Assembly: GCF_019219025.1 (NCBI RefSeq)
Contig: NZ_JAHUWN010000007.1
Coordinates: 62,001-126,000, forward strand
Origin: Bacillus sp. sid0103
GTDB taxonomy: Bacteria; Bacillota; Bacilli; Bacillales_B; DSM-18226
Direction: 5' to 3'
Length of the DNA stretch: 64,000 nt
Numbering within the stretch: position 1 is the first letter of the stretch; each line of letters opens with the position of its first letter. Position numbers and translations under genes: made by a program. Below the pieces are notes generated by a model. It was given only the letters and a program-made list of their open reading frames with translations. It did no database searches and was not told the origin of the DNA. This document shows, one piece after another, positions 3,788 to 38,750 of this stretch.

Positions 3788-3881
3788 CTAAAAATACTTT
3801 ATTGTGACAGAAGCAGTTTGGACGAAATCAGCGATTTCCTTTGGAGTCTTCAGTAAATGCTTTCAGTGATTTTAAATCTAG
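3788..3881 (-). pseudogene. Decayed C-terminal tail of the GH101 enzyme
   Basis: Directly after the TAA at 3882-3884 the same frame reads LDLKSLKAFTEDSKGNR before a stop. The neighbouring frame takes over as PKEIADFVQTASVTIKYF and stops at 3788. Read together these look like the remains of a short helical tail of the kind seen at the end of the GH43 protein at 62.5 kb. The tail has been cut off by one stop and one frameshift. This is an inference from translation; the catalytic part is unaffected. Confidence 0.5.
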
Positions 3882-6800
3882 TTATTCGCCAGTAGAAATT
3901 GTTGCATCTTTAACCTTCAACCCTGTGGCTAAACGTTCAATGCGAAGATTGTCTAAAACAAAAGTTCCTGCCCCGGTATCTCCATTCAAACTAGTTCCAT
4001 CATTGAAAATTCCAATATATGTTTGCCTATTCTCGGAACCAGTTACAGTAAACTCTGCAGTTTTGGTATTGATAGATGCCGGAAGCGTATTATTCAAACT
4101 TAGTCCATTGGCAACCATAATATCTCGTGCATCAATCTCTTGATCCCCTGAGATAAAGCGATAGGAATTGGCAGTAGTTTGATAGTCAAAGGATACTTTA
4201 TAGGTTACTCCTGGTTCAAAGTGGAAGTGCTGCGGAATGGTGCGATACACTAAGCCTTTGTTTCCAGTATTTACTTTAACGGACCAATTTCCTTCGATGA
4301 CATCATCTATTAATTTTTTGCCTGCCCATCCTTTTTGTGTATACGGTGCATGTAATTCAGACAAATGAATTCTGTTGTCTTCAACACCTTCCGTATTACC
4401 AATAACAAATGGGTAAATTCCTTGCGCGACCGTTTCAAAATCTTGTTCAAATACCCCAGGTGAAACATCATTTTTCAGAGATTTTTGAACGACTCGTATA
4501 TCATCAAATTTGGTATTTCCTTCACCGGCCTCACGGCTGAGAATTAATTCAGCCTTTTTAGATGTAGCCGTAAAGCTTACTTGCATCCTTTGCATTTTGC
4601 TATTGTACCCATCGTTCGTAGCATGTGAGTCTGCTTTTACAAAGTTCTTTTGCAGGCTCCGCACCGTGTAATTGCTTACATCTTTTCCCTCGCTACTTAC
4701 TTTTATTCCGGCTTTTACATCACTATTGTTTTCTACATAGACCTCTGCTACATAATCTTTGCCAGCTTCAAGGCCAGTAATGGTACGTGTAACGGTTGTA
4801 TAGCGAGAAGGACTTTCCATATTCAAATAATAGTCGCCGCTGCTTAAATTTCGGGCAGCGCCAGTTTGATTCGTTCTGATGACACTTACAGCATCTTTGT
4901 CACCAGCAACTTTTGTATCTTCATCTTTGACTGTTCCTGAATTGAATCCTGTGTCATAGACATGAGCACCTTTGCTCCAGTCTTCGATTTGTAAGCCCTT
5001 CTCCTTTTTTTCCGGTACGACAATATAAGGTGTAGCTGCCTCAGCCCTCAATGTTACTTGATTATTGACCACCTTGACTTTCTGCACATCTGTTCTACCC
5101 TGATCGGTCAATTTATATACATAAACTTTAGATATACCTGAATATTCATTTGGGAGCGTCCAAGTAGTTGTTCCGCCTTCCAAATTCCAGTGATAAAGTT
5201 TTTCGGAATTAGGTGTTGGAGTCTTGAAATCCTGTTCTACCCACGGAAGTAGATAAGTATGTCCATCAAGGACAACATCTCCATTAAGTGTAATGACACG
5301 TTCTCTGGAGTTGTCTTTTCTTGTTACAACAACATCATCCCCATTACTTGGGTCCGCCAATTTAATTTCCTTTTCCAAGTTTGTTTTGTTTTTATCACCT
5401 TCGACATCTGACCAATCTGTGACATAATACTTTTGTAAAAATTTAGTTGGAAGATTTGTATCGAATGTCATCCGAATAAACTGGTCAAAGCTCTTATCAG
5501 ATTGCCATCCCTCGAAGCCGGCTAATTCAAATCCGCCAAGCAATGGATGATCAGCCGTTCCGCCTGCTTCAGGCCAATTCAACACCCAAGAATCTTTTTG
5601 GTGATTGCTAATAAAGCGGAGTACTTCTGAGTTGATTCCTTTGCTGGCTGCCCCACCGTAGTTCTTATCCGTTGCCCAGTGCTGCCAGGTTGAATAATTG
5701 GCAATAGAAGTACCAAACTCGGTTGATACTCTCCAACCTCTATCCATAAATTGTTCTGCAACTCTATCAGATTCCCACTGGTCTTGATACCATACATCCA
5801 AATAAATAAAGTCAAGACCTGGTGCAGCAGCTTTCAATTCATCCAGTCTTTTTGCACGCGTCCCAGAATATAAATCTTTTAATTTATTGATAGTATAGGA
5901 TTGATCTAACCAGCCCCAGCCTTTGGAATTTGGACCATCAATAAAATCCTCACTAAAAGCTTTTGCTTCAGGATACGTTTCTTGGGCATTAATATGGACA
6001 CCAAATTCAGAATTGTACTTATGACCTTCACTAATAAGTGTTTTTAAATCGTCAGCACCACCCATCCGTTCACCGACATCACCATAATCCGGGTGCCCGC
6101 TGTCATGTCCTTCATTCGCATATCCTTTTAACAGAACAGCCTGGCCTAATCCATCTGTAGCGAGAGCTACCTTTTTAACATTATCCAATGTTTTTAAGAA
6201 TGGCTGTTGTACTTGTGATCCAAAATTCATAGCAATACGTGTGCCGACAAGATTGTTTACATCTTCTGATCCTTTTATGTCTTGCATAATTTCTCGGTAG
6301 GCAATCGCACCGTCCTGCCAGTCAATTTCATCATCTTTATTTAAATCGTCAGCAATAGCAATTTTCACAGTAGGTTTATTGAATTGAGGTTCCTGCATAA
6401 ATTCTCTTTGAGAATAAAGCAAGCTAGAACCAATACCGATGGCTTTCTTGCCATCTTGACTTTGATAACGATTTGCCACTAGGTTACGGTAGCCATTGAC
6501 TTCTGAACTTGACCATACACCTGCACTCAATGTGTCCGTTGACAGGAAAGCACTATAGTATCTTTCTGAAGTTCCAATGCCTCCCAAAGTTGAATCGACA
6601 GTGATATCGACATCCCCAGGTTTGGTCACATCACTGCTAAGATTCGTTAATTTTGCTTTAGCATTGGTTTGAGCTGAATTAACTGAGATAAAGTTCAAAT
6701 CGGCCAATTCAACCGTTTCAATTTTTGCACTTCTGGCGTTGTTGATTTCTTCAAAGGTATAGATCACTTTATTTTTTTGGACTTTTAAAGAAATTTTAAA

Positions 6801-8279
6801 TACAGCATCAAGGTTTTCATATTCATCGATTACCTTTAATGTATACAACGCTTCACTGTCACTCAGCTTTTCAAAGCTTACTTCTGGATAGTAAAGAGTG
6901 CCGTTCACTTTCAATCCGTAAACAGGAGATTTTTGTCCATCCATTACTTTATCGCCAACCCGGTATTCGATGACACGAGGGAATACCTGGTCAATAATGA
7001 CATCCATAAAGTCTGAGCTTAATGAATCTTCAACTGGTGGAGTATCTGGTGCTTTAGGTGGAACATATTCTTTAATTTTGATGTTTGAAATCGTAATGTT
7101 GGCAGCACCACGGCTTTTTTCAAATCCGAGTAAACCTGTTTTATCAACACCGCCTGATAATGTCCAGGAATTCACCTTTTTATCGTTAATGTATAAGGTA
7201 GCTACATCGTCCATGAATTTCATGAGTAAATGATAGGTTTTATTTGCTTCTAATGGCACGTTTGAGGACATCGCCGTCCAACTGTTTGCAGGACCAAAGG
7301 TTTCTCCAAAATACTGATTATTTTGATCTCCAGTACCTACATACGTGTATGCAGATGGATTTTGCACACGATAGATTAGACCAAAACGGTTCATGGAGCC
7401 AGTTGCTGGAGTAATATCAGCTTCAAAAATACCATTCTTAATTGCTTTCATTTTATTGTAGACAATTCGATTCTTTTGGGTAGAGGTAACATGGAAAGTT
7501 GCTGAACCATCTTGATTATAAGTAACGCTTCCGTCACCAGAGATGATTTTAAAATCACCTTCTTCAAGTTGGTTATCAGTAATGTCAACAAGTTCTCCTT
7601 CTCCCGGCACTTGACCTCCATCTCCTGAAGCATCTCCCAATTCAATGAGTACTTGGCTGTTTTTACCACCAAAAGCACCAAGTTTAACCGCTTCCTTACT
7701 TGTTAGCAGCTTATTTACATCATTTGATAAAGTAACCGGTCCAAATAAATCTTTTCCATCTAAGGTAACATTCAATGTGGCTCCGCTATAATTAATTTTA
7801 ATGGAATGTTTGCTCCCAGCTTCAGGAAGTGGGATGTTTGGTCTAGTTTGCAGCCAAGTTCCACTGCCTTGATATTTGTATTCATAGAACCAGCCGAGTG
7901 AGTCATACCCTACAAATACAAAGTTATTAGGGTCACTATAATGTGGATAGAAACCAAATCTGGTATCTGCCGCATTCAATTCGGGAATAAAGGTATATTC
8001 CATCGTTCCTGACTCTTTTGCTGCTTTATCCTTTTCTTGAAAAATAGCAGCTTTAACCCCATTGTCATTTCCAGCACCTGCTCCAAGCAATGCATAAGCC
8101 TTACCATTCTGGGTAACAATTTCATTTACTTCATTTCCTCCAGTTGAAATGGTAACCCATGGATTCGTTACTTCTGCTGTTGCACGTAACGGTGGAATGA
8201 ACCCCGTTAAAAATGTTGGCAAAAATAACACAAGTGCTAGCAGGGTATAAGTCAATCTCTTGTAATACTTTCTACCCAA
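3882..8279 (-). CDS. Secreted endo-alpha-N-acetylgalactosaminidase (GH101)
   Basis: Releases the core-1 disaccharide Gal-beta-1,3-GalNAc from Ser/Thr of mucin-type O-glycoproteins, outside the cell. The most likely start is TTG at 8279, 7 bp after AAAGGAGG; the longer ATG frame from 8357 lacks a site and runs into the promoter. From there the protein has 1465 residues: signal peptide (about 1-36), two lamin-G-like modules (about 40-215 and 230-405), the catalytic region (about 420-1090) and C-terminal carbohydrate-binding-like modules. The nucleophile should be Asp828 in FIYLDVW and the acid/base Glu854 in VSTEFG; SNHQKDSW and PLLGGFE are further GH101 landmarks. No cell-wall anchor is seen; the C-terminus seems shortened (see 3788-3881). 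It is expressed from its own promoter with cre and AraC-type sites at 8384-8434. Confidence 0.93.
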   Translation of the reverse strand: MGRKYYKRLTYTLLALVLFLPTFLTGFIPPLRATAEVTNPWVTISTGGNEVNEIVTQNGKAYALLGAGAGNDNGVKAAIFQEKDKAAKESGTMEYTFIPELNAADTRFGFYPHYSDPNNFVFVGYDSLGWFYEYKYQGSGTWLQTRPNIPLPEAGSKHSIKINYSGATLNVTLDGKDLFGPVTLSNDVNKLLTSKEAVKLGAFGGKNSQVLIELGDASGDGGQVPGEGELVDITDNQLEEGDFKIISGDGSVTYNQDGSATFHVTSTQKNRIVYNKMKAIKNGIFEADITPATGSMNRFGLIYRVQNPSAYTYVGTGDQNNQYFGETFGPANSWTAMSSNVPLEANKTYHLLMKFMDDVATLYINDKKVNSWTLSGGVDKTGLLGFEKSRGAANITISNIKIKEYVPPKAPDTPPVEDSLSSDFMDVIIDQVFPRVIEYRVGDKVMDGQKSPVYGLKVNGTLYYPEVSFEKLSDSEALYTLKVIDEYENLDAVFKISLKVQKNKVIYTFEEINNARSAKIETVELADLNFISVNSAQTNAKAKLTNLSSDVTKPGDVDITVDSTLGGIGTSERYYSAFLSTDTLSAGVWSSSEVNGYRNLVANRYQSQDGKKAIGIGSSLLYSQREFMQEPQFNKPTVKIAIADDLNKDDEIDWQDGAIAYREIMQDIKGSEDVNNLVGTRIAMNFGSQVQQPFLKTLDNVKKVALATDGLGQAVLLKGYANEGHDSGHPDYGDVGERMGGADDLKTLISEGHKYNSEFGVHINAQETYPEAKAFSEDFIDGPNSKGWGWLDQSYTINKLKDLYSGTRAKRLDELKAAAPGLDFIYLDVWYQDQWESDRVAEQFMDRGWRVSTEFGTSIANYSTWQHWATDKNYGGAASKGINSEVLRFISNHQKDSWVLNWPEAGGTADHPLLGGFELAGFEGWQSDKSFDQFIRMTFDTNLPTKFLQKYYVTDWSDVEGDKNKTNLEKEIKLADPSNGDDVVVTRKDNSRERVITLNGDVVLDGHTYLLPWVEQDFKTPTPNSEKLYHWNLEGGTTTWTLPNEYSGISKVYVYKLTDQGRTDVQKVKVVNNQVTLRAEAATPYIVVPEKKEKGLQIEDWSKGAHVYDTGFNSGTVKDEDTKVAGDKDAVSVIRTNQTGAARNLSSGDYYLNMESPSRYTTVTRTITGLEAGKDYVAEVYVENNSDVKAGIKVSSEGKDVSNYTVRSLQKNFVKADSHATNDGYNSKMQRMQVSFTATSKKAELILSREAGEGNTKFDDIRVVQKSLKNDVSPGVFEQDFETVAQGIYPFVIGNTEGVEDNRIHLSELHAPYTQKGWAGKKLIDDVIEGNWSVKVNTGNKGLVYRTIPQHFHFEPGVTYKVSFDYQTTANSYRFISGDQEIDARDIMVANGLSLNNTLPASINTKTAEFTVTGSENRQTYIGIFNDGTSLNGDTGAGTFVLDNLRIERLATGLKVKDATISTGE

Positions 8280-8575: not shown

Positions 8576-9778
8576 TCAGATTGAATAAGCAAGAGAACCG
8601 TCCTCCTTGCCTCCCTTATATTCGTAGATGGTTACGCCTTTAACCACTCGGTTAACCGTTCCTGTCGGTGAAGGGGTATCAGGTGTATTACCGACTTTTA
8701 CGGAAGCAAGCAGTGAGATCGTTTGCCCAATCATGACAAAAGGTAATGCTAAGTAAGCATCCGGTATGGATTGGGCATCTCTGTCGAATAAGAATGTGTT
8801 CCCGTCATAATTCGTTTTTCCATCGACCTCGATAGCACAAATGTTTTTGGCAATGTTATCTCGCTGCAATTCTTTTAATATATCTAAATCATATTGGCGT
8901 GTATAAGGATGATTGGAAACAAAAACACACACCAATGCTTTTTCATTGACGAATGACTTAGGAGCATGTCGGAATCCCAACGGGGAATCAAATGAGGTGA
9001 CAATTTTACCGGCTGTCAGCTCTAATATTTTCAACTGTGCTTCTCTCGCCAAGCCTTCTAAACTTCCGGAGCCAAGGTAAATGATCCTTTCAAAATCGCA
9101 ATCGATGATAGTTTGGATATCCGCTTCACGAAGAATGACACTTTCACCCATTTGGCGAATGATTTGGACAATCGCCCACTTTTCTTCGACAAACAGCGGA
9201 TCAAAAACGAGTAATGCCATTAGCGTCATGCACGAATAACTTCCGGTAATGGCAAATCCTTGATCATTTGCTCTATCGGGCATTAACAACAAAAGATTGT
9301 TTTCATCTCCTTTTGCCCTTTTCGCTAACTCACCATCATTTGCACAGGTAATCGTTAGCTGATATAAGTTCTTTACTAGTTGTTCAGCTAATTCTACGGC
9401 AGCCAAGCTTTCGGGGCTGATGCCGCTTCGCGCAAATGAAACCAACAAGGTTGGGAAATCTGCTTTAAAAAATTCATAGGGATTAGATACCAAAGTGGTT
9501 GTTGGAACACTCAGCAATTCCCACTTTTTTTCATCCACTTTTCCATTTAAATAAGGAAGGCACGTTTCACCGACATTGGCAGAGGTTGCAGCACCCGTAA
9601 AAATAACACGGATACGTTCATGCTGTTCAGCCAGTTTTTGTAAAAAAGCTTGAATCTCTACTCGTTTCTTCGTATACAATGAATAGGTTTCACTCCATAA
9701 ATCCGGTTGTTGCTTGATTTCCGATGTTGTAATCGATGCACCTAAAGACACTAATTTTTCTTGACTAAAAGTGAACAT
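8576..9778 (-). CDS. SIS-domain sugar isomerase, AgaS-like, with altered active-site motifs
   Basis: A 400-residue double-SIS protein of the AgaS type, which converts galactosamine-6-phosphate to tagatose-6-phosphate and ammonia. It is closely similar along its length to the protein at 13506-14672, but conserved sugar-phosphate positions differ. TGAGTSAYVGDT there is TGAATSANVGET here, SFARSGNSPES is SFARSGISPES, and GFRHGPKS is GFRHAPKS. The start MFTFSQEK has AGAGGAG 8 bp upstream. It follows a relic promoter (9943-9996) with an AraC/cre layout and precedes GH101. It could be a weakened duplicate or an enzyme of changed specificity; catalytic activity cannot be judged from sequence alone. 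Confidence 0.82.
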   Translation of the reverse strand: MFTFSQEKLVSLGASITTSEIKQQPDLWSETYSLYTKKRVEIQAFLQKLAEQHERIRVIFTGAATSANVGETCLPYLNGKVDEKKWELLSVPTTTLVSNPYEFFKADFPTLLVSFARSGISPESLAAVELAEQLVKNLYQLTITCANDGELAKRAKGDENNLLLLMPDRANDQGFAITGSYSCMTLMALLVFDPLFVEEKWAIVQIIRQMGESVILREADIQTIIDCDFERIIYLGSGSLEGLAREAQLKILELTAGKIVTSFDSPLGFRHAPKSFVNEKALVCVFVSNHPYTRQYDLDILKELQRDNIAKNICAIEVDGKTNYDGNTFLFDRDAQSIPDAYLALPFVMIGQTISLLASVKVGNTPDTPSPTGTVNRVVKGVTIYEYKGGKEDGSLAYSI

Positions 9779-10284: not shown

Positions 10285-11274
10285 TTACCCTACGATTTTT
10301 TCAAACCACGGGCTTGCTGTCTCTTTCAAGACAATATTTAGTTCTTGGATATTTTTTTTGCCGGTATCTTGTAACCATGCTCGTGCGGATTGTTCCCCAT
10401 TTTCGGCAAAGGGAGCCACGCCATTTTTCCATGTTGCCCGGCCGCAGAGGACACCGTTGAAGGTTGAGCCGGATTCTTTGGCAAACTTCAATGTTTCCTG
10501 GAATAACTCTGCACTTACGCCGGCACTTAAGAAGATAAACGGCAGATCTGTTGCTTCACTTTGCTCTTTGAAATACGCAAATGCTTCTTCCTTGGTATAA
10601 GCTGTTTCGCCTTCCGCATATCCCTCCACAAACTTCATATCCACAGGAACTTCTACCTTCAAAACGTCCACCTTGTACTGTGGCTTGGAGAATTCTCTCA
10701 TTGCCTCAATGACTTTATGCGGCTTCACTTTGGCATACTCTAAACTTTTCACATCATCATTTTTGGCATCATATGTCACAATCTCGAGGAAAAACGGAAT
10801 GTCTTCTGCTGCACACTCAGACCCGACTCGTTCCATATAAACATGCTTATAGTCATTAATTTTTTCATCTTCATCCACATCATAGTACAGTAAGAATTTA
10901 ACCGCATCTGCTCCAGCTTCCTTCAATCCTCTAACAGACCATTCCGGCAATAAATCAGGCAAACGGCCCACGGCTGTTGCATCATAGCCTGTTTTTTCAT
11001 ATGCCACCAATAATCCAGCTTCAGGATGGCGGACCTTCGCAGCCGGCAAACCATATTCCGGATCCAATAGGATTGATGTCGCATAAGGTGTCAACTCTTC
11101 AGAAACCAATTCTTTAAAGCGGACGATTCCCTCGTCTCCGACAAAACTTGAATTTCCTGCCGAAATCATTTTCTTTAATGAACCCCGTTGATCAATCGCC
11201 AAAGCTCCGATAATCCCATTCTCATCCGATAAACGCTTAAGAGCCGCTACTTTATTTTTCGTTAATTCTAACAT
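10285..11274 (-). CDS. lacD: Tagatose-1,6-bisphosphate aldolase (LacD type)
   Basis: Splits tagatose-1,6-bisphosphate into dihydroxyacetone phosphate and glyceraldehyde-3-phosphate, the last step of the tagatose pathway. A class I aldolase of 329 residues, close to the usual 326. [14 protein letters not shown] lies near the N-terminus, the Schiff-base lysine should be that in [10 protein letters not shown], and [11 protein letters not shown] is the phosphate-binding region. I take the ATG at 11274 as start because AGGGGTGA lies about 6-7 bp upstream; the TTG two codons earlier abuts it. Last gene of the operon from the ROK kinase, followed by a strong terminator. Confidence 0.93.
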
Positions 11275-11340
11275 CGACAATCACCCCTATATCATCTATT
11301 CGTAAACTCACCTAGTTAAAAAAATTGGCTTTTATCTCAA

Positions 11341-12276
11341 TTAATCTATTTTCGTAACCTCTACCAACTCAAAAAATTGGCCGAAATTAGCTCGATCAAT
11401 ATAACCTGTTCCTGCTTGCATCGTATTGAGCAGGCCAGTCGTCATGGCTGTTTTCAGAACGTCTGGAACTGACTGCTTTCGATTTAATGCAACCGCTAAT
11501 CCGGCAACGGTGGCATCACCGGAGCCGACAGGGTTCATCACGTCAATCAAAGGAATGGTAACCCGGTAATAATCCGTACCATGCTTAACAAAGGCACCAT
11601 TCCCGCCCATCGAAACGACAACCCATTCAACCCCATGAAACCATTCATTGGTTAGTACTTGTTTCAAACTGCTAATGGTTTGTTCCACCTCTACACCCAG
11701 CAGCTGAGATAGCTCCGCTATATTCGGTTTAATCACAAATGGTTTTACCTTATGTCGCAAAACCTGTCTCAACGACTCCCCTGATGTATCAACAATCACT
11801 GGAATACCCATCTCTCGGCTCATTTCGACCATCCCACAGTAAAACCCAGGCTCAAGCCCTTTTGGTAAACTACCCGAAATCGTCACAAGTGAAGCAGCAG
11901 TCAGTAATTCACGATATTTTTCTAAAAAAGCTGCACTGTCTTCCGCTGAAAGTGTCGGTCCGGATTCTAAAATTTCCGTCTGCCTGCCACCATGGAGAAT
12001 GGCAATACAGTTTCTTGATTCTTGATTGATTTTTAAAAAATTATTTCCGATATCGCTTTTCGTCAATTCCTGAACAATATAGTCACCAATGTTTCCGCCA
12101 AGCACACCTGTCGCCAGGACGTCTTCTCCCATCTGTTTGACGACACGGGCCACATTTAAGCCTTTTCCACCGGCGGTTTTACAAACATGATCTACCCGAT
12201 TAACTTCATCCAGTTTGAATTCTTGAATCGGATAGGAAATATCCAAAGATGGATTCATCGTGATAGCTAAAATCAT
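11341..12276 (-). CDS. lacC: Tagatose-6-phosphate kinase (PfkB family)
   Basis: Phosphorylates tagatose-6-phosphate with ATP to the 1,6-bisphosphate. The 311 residues show both PfkB signatures: GGKGLNVARV near residue 38 and NPVGSGDATVAG near residue 240, where the aspartate is the catalytic base. The start overlaps the deacetylase stop by 4 bp (ATGA), so translation is coupled. Position between the deacetylase and the LacD aldolase supports tagatose-6-P rather than fructose-1-P as substrate, although PfkB sequences alone do not settle this. Confidence 0.9.
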   Translation of the reverse strand: MILAITMNPSLDISYPIQEFKLDEVNRVDHVCKTAGGKGLNVARVVKQMGEDVLATGVLGGNIGDYIVQELTKSDIGNNFLKINQESRNCIAILHGGRQTEILESGPTLSAEDSAAFLEKYRELLTAASLVTISGSLPKGLEPGFYCGMVEMSREMGIPVIVDTSGESLRQVLRHKVKPFVIKPNIAELSQLLGVEVEQTISSLKQVLTNEWFHGVEWVVVSMGGNGAFVKHGTDYYRVTIPLIDVMNPVGSGDATVAGLAVALNRKQSVPDVLKTAMTTGLLNTMQAGTGYIDRANFGQFFELVEVTKID

Positions 12277-13451: not shown

Positions 13452-13505
13452 AATCTGCACCTCTATTTAGAAATGAGAAAGACTGAACTTCCCTTTCCCA
13501 CTGAA

Positions 13506-14672: not shown

Positions 14673-14759
14673 ATGTAACACTCCTCTTATTTTTTGGGGT
14701 ATTTTCTTAAAAATGTGTTTTTTACCTGGTTAAACTCCTAAAAAGTCATAATGTAGTTT

Positions 14760-25953: not shown

Positions 25954-25967
25954 TGGTAACACTTCCT

Positions 25968-29836: not shown

Positions 29837-30886
29837 TTAGGTTCGCTTTATATTAGTTGATTCACGAAGGACTAATTCAAATGGTAAAATAAGCTTGATT
29901 GGCAGTTTAATTTTCTCTTCTGCCATTTCCATAATGGTTTTAGCCGCCATTCTTCCCATTTCATATTTAGGGATTTCTACCGTTGATAGCTGTGGTGTTG
30001 AATATTTTCCCATTTCAATATTATCCACACCAAAGAAAGCGATGTCCTCTGGAATTCTAAGATTATTTTCTATGACGGCTCTCATGGCAGCGATGGCCAT
30101 CATATCACTGGCACAAACCATAGCTGTTGGCAAATGAGCAGAATCCCTTTTAATTAGCTGGTTCATTTCCTCGTAGCTATTTTCCATTTTCCACTTCGTA
30201 TTGATGACCCAATCAGGCCGGACAGCAAGTCCCGCTTCTTTCATGGCAGATTGATACCCTTTAAAACGATATTCAGCAAACAAATCTTCAAAATTTTCAT
30301 TAACTCCGCCGCCAATAAACCCGATTTCCCGATGTCCTTGGCTGACTAAATGCTGTACCACCATTTTAATAGCAGCCACGCGGTTGTAATCGACAACAGC
30401 CATATTCTTATCTGTATAGAAAAAGTCCAATCCGACCAACGGGATCGTTTGCTGTATGTAGTCAATCAGGCTGTCATCAATCCTATCGATCAGCAGAAGT
30501 CCTTCAATCCCTAAGTCATGAATCGTATTAAGAAGCAGCGCCTCGTTTTCAAGCTCATCCTTGGTAATACTGATAAGGGTGTAATCATTAGCTGTTAGTG
30601 TATCGTAAATACCTGTATAAATTTTGGCAAAGTATGGGTTAATTTCCGCTTGTCTTGGATTGGCAACCCAGCCAATTTTCATTGTTCTTATGTTACTCTT
30701 CTTTTCCTTCTTGGTAACTAAATTTCGAGCATGCTGATTTGGTACATAGCCTAACTCCTTAACAGCCTCCCAAATTTTCGCTTTTGTTTCCTGGTTAACA
30801 TTTCGAGTCTGATCATTTTGAATGACTCTCGAAACAGTAGAGATCGAAACGCCTACATATTCCGCAATATCCTTTAATCTTGCCAC
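29837..30886 (-). CDS. LacI-family transcriptional regulator
   Basis: A 349-residue repressor. The N-terminal helix-turn-helix and hinge are ARLKDIAEYVGVSISTVSRV, followed by a periplasmic-binding-type effector domain with FFGVDNIEMGKYSTPQLSTVEI near the end. GTG start with AGAGGTG upstream. First gene of a possible unit with the oxidoreductase and importer; a CG-centred palindrome before the importer is its likely operator. Confidence 0.92.
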   Translation of the reverse strand: MARLKDIAEYVGVSISTVSRVIQNDQTRNVNQETKAKIWEAVKELGYVPNQHARNLVTKKEKKSNIRTMKIGWVANPRQAEINPYFAKIYTGIYDTLTANDYTLISITKDELENEALLLNTIHDLGIEGLLLIDRIDDSLIDYIQQTIPLVGLDFFYTDKNMAVVDYNRVAAIKMVVQHLVSQGHREIGFIGGGVNENFEDLFAEYRFKGYQSAMKEAGLAVRPDWVINTKWKMENSYEEMNQLIKRDSAHLPTAMVCASDMMAIAAMRAVIENNLRIPEDIAFFGVDNIEMGKYSTPQLSTVEIPKYEMGRMAAKTIMEMAEEKIKLPIKLILPFELVLRESTNIKRT

Positions 30887-31218: not shown

Positions 31219-31950
31219 TTACGTTAGTTCCGTATAAAAGCGGCAACGATCGCCTCGGACAATGGATCTACAAAATTCAACAGGAACACCATTAACATCA
31301 TAGGCTGTTCGTTCAAGCAACAGTGCCGGAAGACCTTCTTCCGTTTGTAAATATTTACTTTCCTCAGAACGAATGAGGACTGGTTCAAACGCCTCTTTAG
31401 CTCTAGTTACCACGATATTAAATTCTTGTGTAAATAAATCATATAAGGATACTTCGCCAACCTTTTTAAGCTGTTCTATATTTGAAATCAAGTTTTTCGG
31501 AATAAAAGACGATTCCAAAATATAAGGTTCATTGTTGGCACAACGAAGGCGTTTCATTTCAATGACCTTCTCGTCTTCCCCAAGCTGCAACGCTTCCCGG
31601 ATTTTTGTAGTTGGTTTAGCTTCCTCTATTTTTAGAATGATATCTTTGGGGTTCATTCCCTTTTCTTTTAATACTTTGCTAAAACTGTAAAACCCCATCA
31701 ATGACTGCTGCAATTTTGGTTTAGCCACAAAGGTACCTTTTCCTTGAATTCGGTAAAGGATCCCTTCTTGAACTAGCTCCTCAATTGCCTTTTTAGCGGT
31801 GTTACGGCTCACACCGAATTGATCCATCAATTGATTTTCAGATGGGATTTTATCACCATGTGTCCAAAGTCCCTTTTCAATAGAATCCTTAAGCCTTTCC
31901 ATTAATTGATGATAAAGTGGAATTAGACTTTCATACTGCAGTGGTTCCAT
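31219..31950 (-). CDS. GntR/UTRA-family regulator
   Basis: A 243-residue HutC-type repressor. The winged helix has PSENQLMDQFGVSRNTAKKAIEEL, and the C-terminal UTRA domain ends VEFCRSIVRGDRCRFYTEL. The ATG at 31950 follows AAAGGGTGG by 9 bp; an in-frame ATG 11 codons earlier has no site. Its own promoter (31995-32030) contains TTGGGTTGAC, which also sits at the ROK operon, GH31 and LacI promoters. I infer that this protein is the common regulator of those four units. Confidence 0.88.
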   Translation of the reverse strand: MEPLQYESLIPLYHQLMERLKDSIEKGLWTHGDKIPSENQLMDQFGVSRNTAKKAIEELVQEGILYRIQGKGTFVAKPKLQQSLMGFYSFSKVLKEKGMNPKDIILKIEEAKPTTKIREALQLGEDEKVIEMKRLRCANNEPYILESSFIPKNLISNIEQLKKVGEVSLYDLFTQEFNIVVTRAKEAFEPVLIRSEESKYLQTEEGLPALLLERTAYDVNGVPVEFCRSIVRGDRCRFYTELT

Positions 31951-31994
31951 TATAATAAGCCACCCTTTCAAGCATACTAACATTCTTTTAAAAA

Positions 31995-32138: not shown

Positions 32139-32305
32139 TAAATGTATTTTCGATTGTAATCATAAAGAAGTCCTAAAAGACCGGCTAATCCGATTAACAT
32201 GATGCCCAGTTCGAGTTTACCGGCTGTCTTTTGGTCGTTGATAATCAAAGCTAGACAAATGATAAACACAACAATTTTAATAACGACTATAATATTAGCT
32301 TTCAT
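32138..32305 (-). CDS. Small membrane protein (55 aa) coupled to the GH112 gene
   Basis: A 55-residue frame with two hydrophobic segments (about 4-22 and 31-47), separated by NDQKTAGKLE and ending YDYNRKYI. It overlaps the end of the GH112 gene by 11 bp (ATGAAAGCTAA), with GGGAGG 10 bp upstream of its ATG, and is followed directly by a terminator. The codon-level overlap and good site argue that it is real. Function is unknown; a partner of the importer or of GH112 is possible. Confidence 0.72.
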   Translation of the reverse strand: MKANIIVVIKIVVFIICLALIINDQKTAGKLELGIMLIGLAGLLGLLYDYNRKYI

Positions 32306-34466
32306 TTAGGAATTCCTCCCACCGGATTTCACTAGGTGCCAACGTCACTACTTTACTGTTGCCTTCTCCGTCAAAGACAACCGTTGTTTGCTCCTTCATC
32401 GAATTGTTGACAATCGCCATTTTTCGAATAGATGGGTAGGCATGGACTTCACAATGGATGTTGCTGGCATGCCATTTATGGAATTCCTCCTCTTTATGGG
32501 CCGCATAGTATAACGCCCGCATCAACATCCTTGTGTTTTCCTCACTGTATGGGAGCCCCGCGATATAGACGGCCCTGCCTTCACCAAATGGATGACTGGA
32601 AAGGTGAACTTCTCCATTTGAATACTCAATAATTTCCGTGTCCTCTGACAATGCATAAATATTTTTCATTCCTTCACCAAAATCAAACTGGGTGCTGTCA
32701 GCAGAAATAAAATGCATTTCGACAGGAGTGACAAAATATTTATCTGTGGACAAACTGAATCCTAGTTCTTTGTCAACACCTAAGACATTCGCCAATTGGA
32801 AATAATGGCCTTCATGGTGGCAGGCTGTCGGTTCGCCAATTCCTATGAAGCCCCCGCCGTTATAAATCCAGGCTCTGATTGTCGTGACTAACTTTTCATT
32901 TGTCCAATGAGCTCCCCCGGAAAAAGCGGTTCCAGCGTCTCCGGCATTAATAATGACATCAACATCCTCAGGCACCCCATCATTGATGACATCATCAAAG
33001 CTAATGAAGGAAACATCCACGGCAGCGCCGCTCATGGATTCTAATATGCCTAAATAAGAATAAATTTGTTTATACCATAAGGCATGGGCAACCATATGTG
33101 TCTGCCAAGTTCTCAGCTTGCCCCAAGAATTCAAAATCGCAACTTTAAGACCGCTATAAGGTGTAATGCCTTTGATCGTGTCGTAGATTTCACGGAATTC
33201 CTCGGTCACTTTTTCAATATAGGAAACAAAATCCGGAAATTGATAGGCCAAGCTCAAATAACCGCCGTAACCAATCCGATCAACAGGATTCCTTAATAAC
33301 GCTCTTCGGGCCGTTATCCAGTTTTCATTGGCTTCAATCACAGGGTTGTTCCCTTCATAAAACGTGTCCGGGAAGAAATAAGGTAAGAATCGTCCTTCTG
33401 TATAACGGACATGCGGGATATCGGCAATCATACGTAATGTGGCTCCGCCGCCGACACTGCCGACCACTGCATCTAATCCGATATTTTCAAAGTATTTTCC
33501 ATACGGTTCCGTACCAATCCAGTTATCGCCAAGGAACATCATCGCTTCTTTCCCGCTTTCATGAACAATGTCCACGAGCTTCTTCGCTTCTTCGGCGACA
33601 AACTTTTGCACAAAATCCATATAATCTAAAAAGGCTGGCGTGGGAATTCGAAAGGAAGTATTGTAATAGCCTTGGTCAACGATGTCTTCCGGTCTTAAAC
33701 AGTAGCCTTTTTCTTGTTCAAAGGCATCCATCGCAGCCACTGAAACACTCGCACCATAACCAAACCAATCGACAAATTTTTCTTTGCCTAGATTATTGAA
33801 CACAAGGGTAAAATGGTAGAAAAACGTTGTGAATCGCACGACATCCGTGTCCGGATTTTCTATCAGCCATTGTTTTAAATAGGTATTCATAAATTCATTC
33901 GAGTGTGGCTGCCTGACATCAAAAGGAATGTCATGTGGCTTATCGCCCCAGTCGTTGGTGATATGATTGTACATTTGTGTTGGATCCCAAATGGCATAAA
34001 CTAAGAAGGATACCGTGTATTCGTGCCAAGGAATCGCCTTCGTAATGTAGACCCGATTTGCCGCTTCGTTTACGTCCCACTCATTAACATCAACCACTTC
34101 ACCGGTTGTCCGGTCGATGACCTCCCAGTATTTCTTCGGATCATGGAGGTAATCAGGTCTCACTTGTTCCTCAAAATAGCCCTTCATAAAATCAATTTCC
34201 AGTTCGTCCGTAAGTGCAGTGTTGAACAAGCTCATTAAATAAAGCTGTTGGCATTCATCCATGTGATTCTCCGCGAACTCATTATTGCCGCGGGCAACAA
34301 AATAGGTCGTATAAATTTTCGCATCCAATTGCTTTATTGTCTCATCCAGTTTCGTTCCATCACTATCTCGAATGGCATCCGCGCCCCATCGTTCCATCAA
34401 TTCTTGTGTTTCCTTTAGAAAGTTTTCCTCACTTGGCAAGGTAACGCGACCTTTTCTCTTTTCCAT
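32295..34466 (-). CDS. Galacto-N-biose/lacto-N-biose phosphorylase (GH112)
   Basis: Cleaves Gal-beta-1,3-GalNAc (or GlcNAc) with phosphate to alpha-galactose-1-phosphate and free HexNAc in the cytoplasm. The 723 residues match GH112 in length. The general acid should be Asp314 in MFLGDNWIGTEPYG; DWFGYGASVSVAAMD and DAVVGSVGGGATLRM are other family stretches. AGGAGG precedes the ATG, 10 bp after the permease stop. No signal peptide. With GH101 in the same regulon, galacto-N-biose is the natural substrate; GNB/LNB preference cannot be read with certainty. Confidence 0.94.
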   Translation of the reverse strand: MEKRKGRVTLPSEENFLKETQELMERWGADAIRDSDGTKLDETIKQLDAKIYTTYFVARGNNEFAENHMDECQQLYLMSLFNTALTDELEIDFMKGYFEEQVRPDYLHDPKKYWEVIDRTTGEVVDVNEWDVNEAANRVYITKAIPWHEYTVSFLVYAIWDPTQMYNHITNDWGDKPHDIPFDVRQPHSNEFMNTYLKQWLIENPDTDVVRFTTFFYHFTLVFNNLGKEKFVDWFGYGASVSVAAMDAFEQEKGYCLRPEDIVDQGYYNTSFRIPTPAFLDYMDFVQKFVAEEAKKLVDIVHESGKEAMMFLGDNWIGTEPYGKYFENIGLDAVVGSVGGGATLRMIADIPHVRYTEGRFLPYFFPDTFYEGNNPVIEANENWITARRALLRNPVDRIGYGGYLSLAYQFPDFVSYIEKVTEEFREIYDTIKGITPYSGLKVAILNSWGKLRTWQTHMVAHALWYKQIYSYLGILESMSGAAVDVSFISFDDVINDGVPEDVDVIINAGDAGTAFSGGAHWTNEKLVTTIRAWIYNGGGFIGIGEPTACHHEGHYFQLANVLGVDKELGFSLSTDKYFVTPVEMHFISADSTQFDFGEGMKNIYALSEDTEIIEYSNGEVHLSSHPFGEGRAVYIAGLPYSEENTRMLMRALYYAAHKEEEFHKWHASNIHCEVHAYPSIRKMAIVNNSMKEQTTVVFDGEGNSKVVTLAPSEIRWEEFLNES

Positions 34467-34476
34467 ATAAATCCTC

Positions 34477-35358
34477 CTAATCTTTTAATCCGCCAAGGGT
34501 CATCCCTTGTGTCAATTTCTTTTGAACAATGATATATAAAATCAAGGTCGGCAGCATGACGAGAACCATTCCCGCATACATTTGGCCGTAATTAGCAGCA
34601 GATTTTTGAGCTGCCATTAAGTTCATTAACCCAACAGGCAAGGTCTTATTTGGACCTGGAATCAATGTCAACGCAATAATGTATTCATTCCAAAATGCCA
34701 GGAAGTTGAATAAGATGACGGCTATGATACTGGGCCGGGCCATTGGAATCATAATCGAAATCATCGTTTTGAAATATCCGGCCCCATCGACCAACGCAGC
34801 TTCCTCATACGTAGACGGCAGCGATTGGAAATAACTAGACAACAAGTAAATGGTAAATGGCAAAGCGGTCGCTGCATAAACTACAGCTAAAATAAATAAA
34901 TTGTCTAGTAGGACTCCATCCCCAAATTGTCCTCGTAAAAAGGTATCCCCATCCAATAACATCAAGAAAATCGGAACGACAATGTAGTTCACGTTGATAA
35001 ATAAGCCTGCTTTAAACAAGGTATTTATAAATTGACTGCCTCTAAAGGTGTATCTGGCCAATACATACGCTGCTGGTAAAGCAACAACTAATAAGATAAG
35101 AAGCGCCAAGGCAGTCACCATGACCGAATTTAACATATACGTGCCCATGTTGGCCTTTTCAAATGCATCTATGAAGTTTTGAAAATAGAAACCTTTTGGC
35201 ATGGCCCACGGACTTCCATAAAATTCTTTGTTTTGCTTTAGTGAAGCTAAGAAAACCCATGCAACCGGGATAATAATTGAAATTGCTAATGTGATCAGTG
35301 TGACAAAGATAAATATACGATAAACTTTTTCTGCACTCATGCCTTTGTGTTTTTTCAT
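34477..35358 (-). CDS. ABC transporter permease (MalG type), galacto-N-biose importer
   Basis: Permease of 293 residues with six membrane segments and the EAA loop YEEAALVDGAGYFKTMISIMIPMARPS. It lies between the second permease and GH112 in one operon, so import of the GH112 substrate is the likely role. The cluster lacks an ATPase gene. Confidence 0.92.
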   Translation of the reverse strand: MKKHKGMSAEKVYRIFIFVTLITLAISIIIPVAWVFLASLKQNKEFYGSPWAMPKGFYFQNFIDAFEKANMGTYMLNSVMVTALALLILLVVALPAAYVLARYTFRGSQFINTLFKAGLFINVNYIVVPIFLMLLDGDTFLRGQFGDGVLLDNLFILAVVYAATALPFTIYLLSSYFQSLPSTYEEAALVDGAGYFKTMISIMIPMARPSIIAVILFNFLAFWNEYIIALTLIPGPNKTLPVGLMNLMAAQKSAANYGQMYAGMVLVMLPTLILYIIVQKKLTQGMTLGGLKD

Positions 35359-35372: not shown

Positions 35373-36263
35373 CTAATACTCCAGCACGTCCCGTTTTGTG
35401 ACGCGGCTGACAATAGCCGATAATGCGAATGAGAATATGAAGATGACCACTCCAATTGCCATACCGTAACCATACGAAGAATTGGTGTAAGCCTGCTTAT
35501 ACATATAGCTTAAAAATACTTCCGTCGATCCGTCAGGCCCGCCGCCAGTCATCGCTTGGACAAGAAGAAAACTTAAATTAATCGTACTAATAATGAAGAA
35601 GGTTAACGTGGTCCGAATGTTATTCCAAATCAACGGCAAGGTAATACTGAAAAATTGTCTGATTTGTCCTGCCCCTTCCAAAGCAGATGCTTCATAAAAG
35701 CTTTCCGGGATACTCGCCATACTGGACATATACATGACCATATAATAGCCAACCGCTTGCCAAACGAGCGCGCCGCCAATACTGAAGATGGCTATTTTTT
35801 GATCACCTAGCCACATTTTTTGAAGGTTCTCAAGGTTAAATAAAGCAAGTAGATTATTCAACAAACCTGTGTTTGGATCATAAACCGCAGAAAAAATCCC
35901 AGCAATGACCACTACGGATAAGATATTAGGGATATAGAAAATAATCCGGAACAAGCTGTTGCCTTTCATCTTTTCTCTCGTTAACAAAGTGGCAAACAAG
36001 ATTGCCAGCACCATGGTGATGAGTGTAACGATAACAATCAATACAATACTGTTTTGAAGTGATCGAAAGAAGTTCATATCATTCCATAAAATTTTGAAAT
36101 TATCGAGCCCGACAAATACCTTATTATTAGAAAATCCGCCCCACTTATATAAGGACATCCTGAATACCTGAATTGTAGGAATAATCATAAAAATGGTTAG
36201 CAAAATCAGTGCGGGTACCGTACAAACAAAGATAAAAATCCTTTTTTCTATCGTTTTATTCAT
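35373..36263 (-). CDS. ABC transporter permease (MalF type), galacto-N-biose importer
   Basis: Permease of 296 residues from ATG 36263, 6 bp after AGAGGTG; the GTG three codons earlier overlaps the site. The EAA loop FYEASALEGAGQIRQFFSITLPLI and six membrane segments are visible. Separated from the binding-protein gene by a gap with a strong hairpin. Confidence 0.92.
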   Translation of the reverse strand: MNKTIEKRIFIFVCTVPALILLTIFMIIPTIQVFRMSLYKWGGFSNNKVFVGLDNFKILWNDMNFFRSLQNSIVLIVIVTLITMVLAILFATLLTREKMKGNSLFRIIFYIPNILSVVVIAGIFSAVYDPNTGLLNNLLALFNLENLQKMWLGDQKIAIFSIGGALVWQAVGYYMVMYMSSMASIPESFYEASALEGAGQIRQFFSITLPLIWNNIRTTLTFFIISTINLSFLLVQAMTGGGPDGSTEVFLSYMYKQAYTNSSYGYGMAIGVVIFIFSFALSAIVSRVTKRDVLEY

Positions 36264-36283
36264 TGCTATCACCTCTACTAATA

Positions 36284-36351: not shown

Positions 36352-37704
36352 TTATTTTATTGCCGACCGTAATTGGTCACTCACTTTTTCAACGGATTTT
36401 TGCCAATCTTTCACTTTTTTATCACCTGAAACAATGCTGTCGATGGATCTGAATAATGTATCTGCCATGCTGACTCCCTCAACAGCTTCTGTTGCAGCAA
36501 ATCCACCCATACCAGCTTTTGCTCCGGAATCATAGATACTATAGAAGAGTTTATTGTCACCAGTCAGCTTTTCAGAGATACCTTCGATTGGTTGAATCGC
36601 ACCAGCTTCTGCAAAAATAGCTGCTGCTTTATCTGAATACACAAAAGTTAAGAAGTCTTTCGCTGCATCTTTATTTTTAGCTTGAGCAGGTACCCACATT
36701 TGTTCGAAGAACGTAAATGCGTAACGGTCACCGCCATTTTCAATAGCCGGCAACGCTGTCATTCCCCATACAAAGCCATCAGCTCTTGGGGCATCTTTCA
36801 TTTCACCAACGACCCACGTACCATTTGGCATGAACAGTGCTTTATTATCGAGAATCAATTGTTGGTTTTTCGTGTAATCTTTGTCATTTGCATTGGCAAC
36901 TGTTGTTGGCTCAGTGTATTTCGCTAATTTACCGACAATTTCAAATGCTTTCGTTGCTTCAGGAGATTCCCAAATGCCATCTTCGTATTTCATCGCTTTA
37001 TTGTAGAATTCCGGACCGCCAACTTCTAATAATAAAGAATAGAAGAATGCATCAAAGTAACCGGTCGTAGGATACGTGAACAAAGAGATTCCTTCTGCTT
37101 TCGCTTTATCGCCCAACGCCCACATCTCATCCCAGGTCTTTGGTACTTCCCAGCCTTTTTCTTTTAACAAGGCGGCATTATAGAATAATCCTGTTGGACT
37201 ATAAAACATCGGTGCCATATACGTTTTGCCGTCGTTATAAGGACTAGTGGCAAGTGTATCAGTAAAACCTGGTACTAGCTTATCCTTAACTTTGGCATCT
37301 TCACCAAAAACCTTCTTATCAAAAACATCAGTAATATCTTCTAATGCCTTATCCTTAATCAATGTTTCTGTTAAGGCCAATTTCCTCCCGGTTCCCAATA
37401 ACACTACATCCGGATAGTTTCCGGCTTTCATATTCGGACTAATCGCATCCTCGAGATTTTTATCTACCGTCAACTCCACGTTGACATTTTGATTGGCATC
37501 CTCATAAGCATCGATCACTTTAGTCCACATATCTTTCCCATAAGCAGATTCAAGCGCCGCCACTTGAAGGGTTTGTTTATTACCCGAATCTTTACCATCC
37601 TTAGAGTCATCACCATTTGTAGTTTCGCTATTCTGACAGGCTATTAAACTAAGGGATAACCACGCTGTCATTCCTGACAACAAAAACTTCTTTTTCATCT
37701 TCAT
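36352..37704 (-). CDS. Sugar-binding lipoprotein, galacto-N-biose importer
   Basis: Extracellular binding protein of 450 residues from ATG 37704 (GAGGAGGG upstream; the longer frame from 37821 would include the promoter). The lipoprotein signal ends LSLIAC before QNSE. The mature part is of family-1 type with GWEVPKTWDEMWALGDKAK. It is first in the operon with two permeases, GH112 and a small membrane protein. A relic of its N-terminus survives at 9846-9914. Confidence 0.92.
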   Translation of the reverse strand: MKMKKKFLLSGMTAWLSLSLIACQNSETTNGDDSKDGKDSGNKQTLQVAALESAYGKDMWTKVIDAYEDANQNVNVELTVDKNLEDAISPNMKAGNYPDVVLLGTGRKLALTETLIKDKALEDITDVFDKKVFGEDAKVKDKLVPGFTDTLATSPYNDGKTYMAPMFYSPTGLFYNAALLKEKGWEVPKTWDEMWALGDKAKAEGISLFTYPTTGYFDAFFYSLLLEVGGPEFYNKAMKYEDGIWESPEATKAFEIVGKLAKYTEPTTVANANDKDYTKNQQLILDNKALFMPNGTWVVGEMKDAPRADGFVWGMTALPAIENGGDRYAFTFFEQMWVPAQAKNKDAAKDFLTFVYSDKAAAIFAEAGAIQPIEGISEKLTGDNKLFYSIYDSGAKAGMGGFAATEAVEGVSMADTLFRSIDSIVSGDKKVKDWQKSVEKVSDQLRSAIK

Positions 37705-37744
37705 TTTGACCCTCCTCTTTATTTTCACTTTATAGGTAAAGTAT

Positions 37745-37801
37745 ACGAAATAAAAAAACGCTTTCACAACAAACATCTTGTCCAGTTTTTTAGATATCTT
37801 G
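37745..37801 (-). promoter_or_regulatory. Galacto-N-biose operon control region: AraC-type repeats, cre-like site and promoter
   Basis: Minus strand: CAAGAT repeats at 37796-37801 and 37775-37780 (21 bp apart), then TTGTGA (-35), an 18-bp spacer beginning AAGCGTTTTTT (cre-like), and TATACT (-10, near 37741). The regulator gene starts 71 bp away on the other strand. Confidence 0.72.
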
Positions 37802-37871
37802 TTTTCATTGTAATAATTCACTAAAAATCCTATAATTCAGGTATCAGATTGCAGATGAAGGAGGGAATCAT

Positions 37872-38750
37872 TTGTCAAATGAGATTTATGAGGTTCCGCA
37901 ATCGCAACGAGGCCATCTTCCAGTAAAACTTCTCTATGTAACAAAATCAAAATATGACAAAGATTGGCATAGTACCAACCATACACATCATTTTACAGAA
38001 TTATTGTATATTACCAAAGGCAAAGGGACTTTTATCTTTTCCAATCAAGAAGTTCCTGTTAAAGAGCATGATGTAATTGTTATCAATCCGAATATTGAAC
38101 ACACGGAAAAGTCTGGTGTCGATCATCCGCTCGAATACATTGCACTGGGTATCCAAGGGCTCGCCTTTTCGTCTCCAGATGATCCGGGTTTACAAGTCAC
38201 TTTTTTAAATTTTAAACAAGAGGAAAAGGTCTATCTCTTATACCTCCAGCAATTAGTGGAGGAAGTGGAAAACCAAAAGGAAGATTTTGAATTGATCATA
38301 CAAAATATATTAGAAATTTTGTTGCTTAAAATGATGAGAAAAAAAGCTTTTAACTTGGAGAAGACCTCTACTAAAAAGATCAGTAAAGATGTGGCTTTTA
38401 TCAAAAATTACATTAAGCAGTTTTTTCGCGAAGAGATCAATCTGGATACGTTAGCAGAGGCTGGTCATATCAATAAATACTATCTTTCCCATTCCTTTAA
38501 GAAATCCGTCGGTGTTTCACCGATTGAATATCTAATACAAACCCGCATTAGGGAAAGTAAAATTTTGTTAGAAACCACCAACTACCCAATTTCAGATATC
38601 TCAACCATTATCGGCTTTTCTTCCCAGTCATTCTTTGCACAATCCTTTAAACGAGTAACGAATCTATCTCCTTCACAATACAGAAATGCTAAAAACTCTA
38701 ACAAAAAAAAGACCGAAATCAAAAAGCAACAAAAAAATAAACGCACATAA
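37872..38750 (+). CDS. AraC-family transcriptional regulator
   Basis: A 292-residue activator. The N-terminal cupin sugar-sensing domain (about 20-110) has HTHHFTELLYITKGKGTF, and the C-terminal pair of helix-turn-helix motifs (about 180-275) has INLDTLAEAGHINKYYLSHSF and SDISTIIGFSSQSFFAQSFKR. TTG start with GAAGGAGGG 5 bp upstream. Divergent from the galacto-N-biose operon. The 21-bp-spaced CAAKAT repeats before that operon and before GH101 are its likely sites. Confidence 0.92.
   Translation: MSNEIYEVPQSQRGHLPVKLLYVTKSKYDKDWHSTNHTHHFTELLYITKGKGTFIFSNQEVPVKEHDVIVINPNIEHTEKSGVDHPLEYIALGIQGLAFSSPDDPGLQVTFLNFKQEEKVYLLYLQQLVEEVENQKEDFELIIQNILEILLLKMMRKKAFNLEKTSTKKISKDVAFIKNYIKQFFREEINLDTLAEAGHINKYYLSHSFKKSVGVSPIEYLIQTRIRESKILLETTNYPISDISTIIGFSSQSFFAQSFKRVTNLSPSQYRNAKNSNKKKTEIKKQQKNKRT

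What the first reader, a model, noticed from the sequence alone, without database searches (positions are those of the whole stretch)
3788..38750. A complete core-1 mucin O-glycan route in a Bacillaceae-like genome
One 35-kb island has a secreted GH101, an importer with GH112, a GalNAc-type PTS, a ROK kinase, deacetylase, AgaS, tagatose kinase and aldolase, plus a GH31 of the alpha-GalNAcase type. GH101 and GH112 are best known from host-associated bifidobacteria, clostridia and streptococci. Here both feed one pathway: GNB import and phosphorolysis inside, and free GalNAc through the PTS. The catalytic residues are visible in all enzymes.
Basis: partly seen in the sequence, partly recalled or inferred. 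Interest (0 to 1): 0.75.

Follow-up and report, generated by a model that had tools for sequence, protein, structure and literature searches.

The report
Soil bacterium's mucin-sugar eating island
A Neobacillus-type bacterium carries a gene island that appears to clip a common sugar unit off animal mucus proteins, bring it into the cell and burn it; the enzymes are of known kinds and related bacteria carry the same core genes, but one conserved import-plus-enzyme block in the middle has no known function and may be a new way of releasing the sugar.

Summary
Window 3882-38750 encodes a secreted GH101, an ABC importer with GH112, a GalNAc-type PTS, a ROK kinase, deacetylase, AgaS-like protein, LacC, LacD and a secreted GH31 closest to the solved E. 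faecalis alpha-GalNAcase. The core-1 reading (GNB cut outside, imported, phosphorolysed; GalNAc-6-P to tagatose) is well supported, but not unusual for Bacillaceae. In 193 genomes of one family GH112 is in 19, GH101 in 20, both in 16, within 16 kb in 13 of the 16. Two genomes with GH101 but no GH112 carry a GH35-type gene in the GH112 slot. GalT, needed for Gal-1-P, is in 19 of 19 GH112 genomes but not among 47 window proteins scanned.

Its LacI-Gfo-SBP-permease-permease core recurs; 18 of 27 loci examined have this importer with ROK and AgaS genes. I propose a third entry route: import of a GalNAc glycoside, release of GalNAc by the Gfo/Idh protein, ROK phosphorylation. That is inference. No activity was tested.

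The parts
3882..8279 (-). GH101 endo-alpha-N-acetylgalactosaminidase, secreted (longest ORF reaches 8357; likely TTG start at 8279)
   Evidence: Pfam; PDB 3ecq; RBS and start
8576..9778 (-). second AgaS-like sugar-phosphate isomerase/deaminase
   Evidence: TIGR02815 420.7 bits, below its cut-off 529.2
10285..11280 (-). LacD tagatose-1,6-bisphosphate aldolase
   Evidence: TIGR01232 480.1 over cut-off 432.2
11341..12276 (-). LacC tagatose-6-phosphate kinase
   Evidence: TIGR01231 412.2 over cut-off 409.55; NF010033 412.3 below 469
12273..13460 (-). NagA/AgaA-type N-acetylhexosamine-6-phosphate deacetylase
   Evidence: TIGR00221 293.8 over cut-off 225.65; NF008371 below cut-off
13506..14681 (-). 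AgaS-like galactosamine-6-phosphate isomerase/deaminase
   Evidence: TIGR02815 445.1 bits, below its cut-off 529.2
14880..15791 (-). ROK kinase, proposed GalNAc 6-kinase
   Evidence: PF00480; position in the conserved operon
16204..16626 (-). GalNAc PTS IIA (AgaF)
   Evidence: NF040761 over cut-off
16655..17524 (-). GalNAc-type PTS IID
   Evidence: PF03613; NF040760 418.8, below cut-off 500
17514..18287 (-). GalNAc PTS IIC (AgaW)
   Evidence: NF040757 over cut-off
18304..18834 (-). GalNAc PTS IIB
   Evidence: NF008508 over cut-off
18997..19722 (-). GntR/UTRA regulator
   Evidence: Pfam
20027..24460 (-). secreted GH31 alpha-GalNAcase-type enzyme with an FN3 and two CBM32-like stretches, and dockerin-like and cohesin-like segments
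   Evidence: PDB 6m76, 4lpl, 4uap matches; FN3 and F5/F8 type C in Pfam; dockerin/cohesin read by eye
25120..25962 (-). ABC permease (second importer)
   Evidence: PF00528
25968..26999 (-). ABC permease (second importer)
   Evidence: PF00528
26977..28275 (-). ABC solute-binding lipoprotein (second importer)
   Evidence: PF01547; lipobox
28467..29741 (-). Gfo/Idh/MocA protein, proposed NAD-dependent GalNAc-glycoside-cleaving or -oxidising enzyme
   Evidence: PF01408; model and fold matches; neighbourhood
29837..30886 (-). LacI regulator
   Evidence: Pfam; near the Gfo gene in 25 of 27 loci
31219..31983 (-). second GntR/UTRA regulator
   Evidence: Pfam; 12-of-12 promoter-like site at 32022-31995
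32295..34466 (-). [quoted passage not shown]
   Evidence: TIGR02336; PDB 3wfz/2zus
34477..35358 (-). ABC permease of the GNB importer
   Evidence: Pfam
35373..36272 (-). ABC permease of the GNB importer
   Evidence: Pfam
36352..37821 (-). ABC solute-binding protein of the GNB importer (longest ORF; the lipobox at residues 59-62 suggests a later start)
   Evidence: TIGR03850 bind_CPR_0540 705.5 over cut-off 299; lipobox
37872..38750 (+). AraC-type regulator, divergent
   Evidence: Pfam; kept beside the importer in relatives

Best explanation
The island is a catabolic locus of a Neobacillus-type bacterium for mucin-type O-glycans. Inferred steps: secreted GH101 releases galacto-N-biose (Gal-beta1,3-GalNAc) from core-1 glycans; the ABC importer 34477-37821 brings it in; GH112 phosphorolyses it to Gal-1-P (to a GalT encoded elsewhere) and GalNAc; the ROK kinase makes GalNAc-6-P. 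Secreted GH31 trims alpha-GalNAc, and the PTS imports free GalNAc as GalNAc-6-P. The deacetylase, AgaS-like protein, LacC and LacD then yield triose phosphates. A second ABC importer with a Gfo/Idh protein is a third entry arm for a GalNAc glycoside whose cleavage also feeds the ROK kinase. Gene presence, family and neighbourhood conservation are shown; substrates, activities and the order of steps are inferred.
For: Family assignments and aligned catalytic acids. GH101 and GH112 are both in 16 of 193 genomes (3 GH112 only, 4 GH101 only, 170 neither; Fisher p 5e-17, not corrected for kinship), within 16 kb in 13 of the 16. In L005, L006 and L014, ROK, AgaS and LacC/LacD genes follow GH112 within 10 kb on the same strand, as expected if the ROK protein phosphorylates GalNAc freed by GH112. 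The GH112 slot of the importer operon holds a GH35-type gene in G135 and G161 (Pfam run on the L161 copy only), as expected if the imported sugar is a beta-galactoside. GalT is in 19 of 19 GH112 genomes and within 20 kb of GH112 in 7 of 19. Of 27 Gfo loci examined, 18 have the orthologous ABC importer plus ROK plus AgaS.
Against: No activity, growth or expression data. Both AgaS-like proteins and PTS IID fall below NCBIfam cut-offs, and LacC and the deacetylase pass one equivalog model each and miss another. GNB against LNB preference was not read from GH112. A GH31_18 of another species acted on pNP-alpha-GalNAc but not on mucin, gastric mucin glycans, blood group A, Tn antigen or fetuin (PMC13096917, passages), so the natural substrate of this GH31 is open. 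Genomes with GH112 but no detected GH101 exist (3 of 19; 6 of 21; the sets overlap). The Gfo arm is separable from the GNB arm: 12 of 19 GH112 genomes have a close Gfo copy, within 20 kb of GH112 in 6 of 19, and 18 of 30 Gfo genomes lack GH112. The window's own genome is not held, so its GalT was not seen.
Confidence: 0.8

Rival explanations
1. The Gfo/Idh block is not a glycosidase route but an oxidoreductase side branch: it oxidises an imported glycoside or the released sugar at a ring hydroxyl, and cleavage is done by another enzyme encoded elsewhere.
For: Most of the fold matches shown are dehydrogenases; 5uhw, 6o15, 6z3c and 6a3g lie within 1 Z unit of the glycosidase 8qc5. In several genomes the same gene lies near GH35, GH2, sulfatase, PL8 lyase or GH29 genes and not near ROK and AgaS (L133, L134, L151, L160 by Pfam; L159 by N-terminal sequence only).
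Against: 18 of 27 loci keep it with the importer, ROK and AgaS, and no other glycosidase lies in the window's LacI-to-permease block.
Confidence: 0.5
2. The substrate is not mucin core-1 but another galactosyl-hexosamine source such as lacto-N-biose units, or GalNAc-containing bacterial polymers or glycosaminoglycans; the island is a general amino-sugar locus.
For: GH112 members differ in acceptor preference, GNB, LNB or L-rhamnose (PMC8950772, passages). Gfo relatives also lie near a PL8 lyase and sulfatases.
Against: GH101, GH31 of the alpha-GalNAcase type, a GalNAc PTS and the tagatose route lie together in one island; GH101 and GH112 co-occur.
Confidence: 0.12
3. The island is a recent import from gut bacteria and not a resident trait.
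For: GH101 and GH112 are well known from gut and host-associated bacteria (general knowledge; PMC5583593 passages).
Against: The 12 nearest GH112 relatives are Bacillaceae-type records at 84-92% identity, while the Lachnospiraceae and other clostridial records kept are about 65-74%; 18 of 22 Bacillaceae-type loci keep the AraC/importer/GH112 order. No tree was built.
Confidence: 0.05

Closest known systems
GNB/LNB pathway of Bifidobacterium longum (GH101 EngBF, ABC importer, GH112 GLNBP, N-acetylhexosamine 1-kinase; pathway layout recalled)
   Same: Extracellular GH101, ABC import, intracellular GH112 close to 2zus/3wfz.
   Different: No kinase of the N-acetylhexosamine 1-kinase kind was seen among the 47 window proteins scanned; a ROK kinase and the deacetylase/AgaS/LacC/LacD route are present.
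Clostridium perfringens GNB phosphorylase locus (recalled beyond the family name; that locus was not examined here)
   Same: The importer's binding protein matches TIGR03850, named after CPR_0540, far above its cut-off; GH31 accessory modules match the solved entries 4lpl and 4uap (C. perfringens origin recalled).
   Different: In five other Clostridium loci (L067, L068, L073, L078, L080) the binding-protein match lies after GH112; here it is first.
aga GalNAc regulons (AgaPTS, AgaA, AgaS and tagatose-route genes)
   Same: PTS subunits of Aga type, deacetylase, AgaS-like protein, tagatose kinase and aldolase; compare PMC5583593 (passages).
   Different: Here joined to an ABC/GH112 arm, a ROK kinase and a Gfo/Idh arm.
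NAD-dependent glycoside hydrolases 8qc5, 8qc8 (sulfoquinovosidases; CAZy family GH188 recalled)
   Different: Sequence identity only 16-18%; plain dehydrogenases tie; substrate unknown.

Membership tests
GH101 | GH101 catalytic domain with its accessory domains | tested here: met
   Six GH101-architecture Pfam domains, all over gathering cut-off
GH101 | catalytic Asp and Glu | tested here: met
   D854 and E880 align with the acids of 3ecq (roles recalled)
GH101 | member of the pneumococcal SpGH101 model NF040533 | tested here: not met
   923.4 bits against 2900; filed as GH101, not as SpGH101
GH101 | releases Gal-beta1,3-GalNAc from core-1 glycoprotein | not testable with these tools
   needs assay
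GH112 beta-1,3-galactosyl-N-acetylhexosamine phosphorylase | TIGR02336 equivalog score | tested here: met
   1074.2 against 560.3
GH112 beta-1,3-galactosyl-N-acetylhexosamine phosphorylase | general acid Asp | tested here: met
   D314 aligned with position 313 of 3wfz (role recalled)
GH112 beta-1,3-galactosyl-N-acetylhexosamine phosphorylase | GNB rather than LNB or Gal-Rha preference | not tested
   specificity residues were not examined; only gene context bears on it
GH31 alpha-GalNAcase subfamily (GH31_18) | closest solved relative is an alpha-GalNAcase, catalytic Asp pair kept | tested here: met
   6m76/7f7r/7f7q at E 6.8e-228 to 7.1e-227, the next GH31 at 3.9e-50; D403 and D457
GalNAc PTS (Aga type) | NCBIfam equivalog cut-offs for all four subunits | tested here: inconclusive
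   IIA, IIC and IIB over cut-off, IID below
AgaS family (TIGR02815) | curated cut-off 529.2 | tested here: not met
   445.1 and 420.7, full-length matches; therefore called AgaS-like
GH109 (Gfo/Idh-type alpha-GalNAcase) | GH109 C-terminal domain PF21252 | tested here: inconclusive
   Not among the Gfo protein's Pfam hits at E 0.001; 0 of 12 genomes matched but no control genome rang; no row naming GH109 among those shown
Gfo/Idh/MocA superfamily | Rossmann domain plus GFO C domain and EKP motif | tested here: met
   PF01408, PF22725, PF02894; E101 K102 P103 invariant in 30 aligned sequences

The most novel reading that the evidence does not exclude
The recurring LacI-Gfo/Idh-SBP-permease-permease operon is a third GalNAc entry system: it imports a GalNAc glycoside (for example GalNAc-alpha-Ser/Thr or a GalNAc disaccharide), and the Gfo/Idh protein is an unrecognised NAD+-dependent, redox-assisted glycosidase that releases GalNAc for the ROK kinase. 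It would be a new family beside the known NAD-dependent glycosidases.
Probability: 0.3. Interest if true: 0.6.

Novelty: new variant of a known kind. Interest (0 to 1): 0.38.

Why it matters
If true, core-1 O-glycan catabolism is a recurring trait of Bacillaceae, kept as a linked set of genes, which bears on who recycles animal glycoproteins and offers a source of O-glycan enzymes. The recurring Gfo/Idh arm gives a specific, cheap test for a possible new class of NAD-dependent GalNAc-releasing enzyme.

Tried and rejected
GH109 membership of the Gfo protein: no positive evidence from Pfam, PDB sequence searches or the fold rows shown. This does not exclude it: one search showed 60 of 106 matches, searches showed 50 rows each, and one search had no control that rang. 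A shared GntR operator: only scattered imperfect palindromes, not pursued. Catabolite-repression boxes: 12 one-mismatch sites against a mean of 4.15 in shuffles (0 of 100 shuffles reached 12), none exact; 7 of the 12 are in the island, six of these seven inside genes, and two pairs are the same palindrome read on both strands. A looser core AANCGNTT occurs 7 times between genes against 3.9 expected by length (gene limits were set by hand, with later starts for GH101 and the GNB binding protein, so the box at 37756 lies inside that longest ORF); I read 8389, 9951 and 37756 as possible LacI or CcpA boxes, no more. Promoter-like sites are 54 against 42.7 (sd 5.9) and 56 against 57.6 (sd 8.4); terminator-like sites 17 against 13.6 (sd 4.6) and 28 against 13.4 (sd 4.1). 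Papers: ten searches gave no title or abstract start in the listings that describes this island or the Gfo arm; of the papers I opened four (PMC11861894, PMC8950772, PMC5583593, PMC13096917) and saw passages only. The library holds open-licence papers only.
Full report
Observation. The window carries one run of genes from 3882 to 38750, on the minus strand except the AraC gene, with the named enzymes as long open frames. Pfam and NCBIfam support GH101, GH112, GalNAc-type PTS subunits, a ROK kinase, NagA-type deacetylase, AgaS-like protein, LacC and LacD. The GH31 has the E. faecalis alpha-GalNAcase as its nearest solved relative by a wide margin. GH101 and GH112 align with 3ecq and 3wfz, and the expected acids are in place (residue roles recalled). 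Weak points: PTS IID and both AgaS-like proteins fall below their curated cut-offs, LacC and the deacetylase pass one equivalog model and miss another, and a simple search did not find the ROK zinc motif.

There is a second AgaS-like gene (8576-9778). Between GH31 and GH112 lies a block of two permeases, a solute-binding lipoprotein, a Gfo/Idh/MocA protein, a LacI and a GntR regulator (25120-31983).

Host and commonness. A flanking AMP-binding (acyl-CoA synthetase-like) protein is up to 89% identical to proteins in the genus set of the Neobacillus drentensis record; 14 of 61 genomes matched at E 1e-200. The Gfo protein is 97% identical to a N. drentensis protein. The host is therefore probably a Neobacillus; its own genome is not held. 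A scan of the species-genome collection matched 281 stretches, 278 encoding a GH112 relative; the best 80 were kept, and the best 17 are Bacillaceae-type records (one labelled Paenibacillus). Of 22 Bacillaceae-type loci (L001-L017, L020, L029, L037, L039, L042), 18 keep the order AraC, binding protein, permease, permease, GH112; L029 has GH101 between AraC and the binding protein, and L004, L011 and L013 begin inside or after that run. In 193 genomes of one family GH112 is in 19, GH101 in 20 and both in 16; in these 16 the two lie within 16 kb in 13, 63 kb apart in one and on different contigs in two. Of the 21 GH112-bearing genomes first reached from the loci, 15 have GH101. The Fisher value is not corrected for relatedness.

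Support for the pathway. In L005, L006 and L014 ROK, AgaS and LacC/LacD genes follow GH112 within 10 kb on the same strand, the order expected if GalNAc freed by GH112 is phosphorylated by the ROK protein. In G135 and G161, which have GH101 but no GH112, the GNB-type importer genes are followed by an 847-aa gene in the GH112 slot (L153, L161). Pfam calls the L161 copy GH35; the L153 copy starts almost identically but was not scanned. The other two GH101-only genomes (G054, G162) were not examined. GalT was found in 19 of 19 GH112 genomes and within 20 kb of GH112 in 7. No GalT is among the 47 window proteins scanned with Pfam.

The Gfo/Idh arm. A protein search gave 7928 relatives among 7998 scored candidates, with 120 listed, so the wider family is very large. 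In the 193-genome family a close copy (E 1e-150) is in 30 genomes, 32 copies (in many genomes only 9 candidates were scored). I fetched one locus each for 27 of the 30. Within 11.5 kb on the same strand, LacI is near it in 25 of 27, the orthologous ABC importer in 20, ROK plus AgaS in 20, and importer plus ROK plus AgaS in 18. Without ROK plus AgaS are L133, L134, L151, L153 (cut by the fetched stretch), L157 (GH31 next to the importer), L159 and L160; L154 and L163 have ROK and AgaS without the orthologous importer. Several of these lie near GH35, GH2, sulfatase, PL8 lyase or GH29 genes. Outside that family six more loci were fetched and not counted: L138 and L139 have Gfo, importer, ROK, AgaS and PTS together; L137 has AgaS, deacetylase and another importer nearby; L142 has Gfo and importer; L136 and L144 have no such neighbours. 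In L142, a gut Lachnospiraceae genome (Gfo 42-45% identical), the block adjoins a 639-aa protein over the DUF5696 and GH101 cut-offs and below the GH129 cut-off.

The arm is separable from the GNB arm: 12 of 19 GH112 genomes have a close Gfo copy, within 20 kb of GH112 in 6 of 19. Of 25 GH112-bearing genomes searched first, 11 have a copy of at least 64% identity.

Regulation. Terminator-like hairpins follow lacD (10273-10240), agaS2 (8484-8460) and GH101 (3764-3736); a perfect promoter-like site precedes the second GntR gene. LacI- or CcpA-like boxes lie at 8389, 9951 and 37756. None of this is evidence of function.

Verdict. A real, well-formed core-1 O-glycan island of a known kind that recurs in Bacillaceae, with a recurring, unassigned Gfo/Idh arm that is the one point of possible novelty.

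Noticed in passing
window 52122-61915: A second glycan locus: LacI, binding protein, two permeases and a protein with a Melibiase domain nearest to solved alpha-galactosidases, plus a 348-aa protein without a Pfam hit and a 651-aa one with weak CBM hits.
   Followed up: partly
window 20027-24460, residues about 1086-1290 of the protein: The secreted GH31 carries dockerin-like and cohesin-like segments between its CBM32-like stretches, read by eye; not called by Pfam at E 0.001.
   Followed up: no
window 38974-50902: A surface-polysaccharide locus (glycosyltransferases, O-antigen-ligase-like and Wzz proteins, UDP-sugar dehydrogenase, LytR-CpsA-Psr) directly beside the island.
   Followed up: no
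G002, G150 (loci L097, L158): A second, about 40% identical GH101 type of about 1186 aa lies within 8 kb of the first GH101 in two genomes.
   Followed up: no
L153, L161: A GH35-type gene occupies the GH112 slot of the GNB importer operon in two genomes without GH112 (Pfam on L161 only).
   Followed up: partly
L151, L159, L160, L162: Sulfatases (L151, L160 by Pfam; L159 by its N-terminal sequence only) and a radical-SAM protein (L162) lie close to Gfo/Idh homologues, hinting at sulfated glycans.
   Followed up: no
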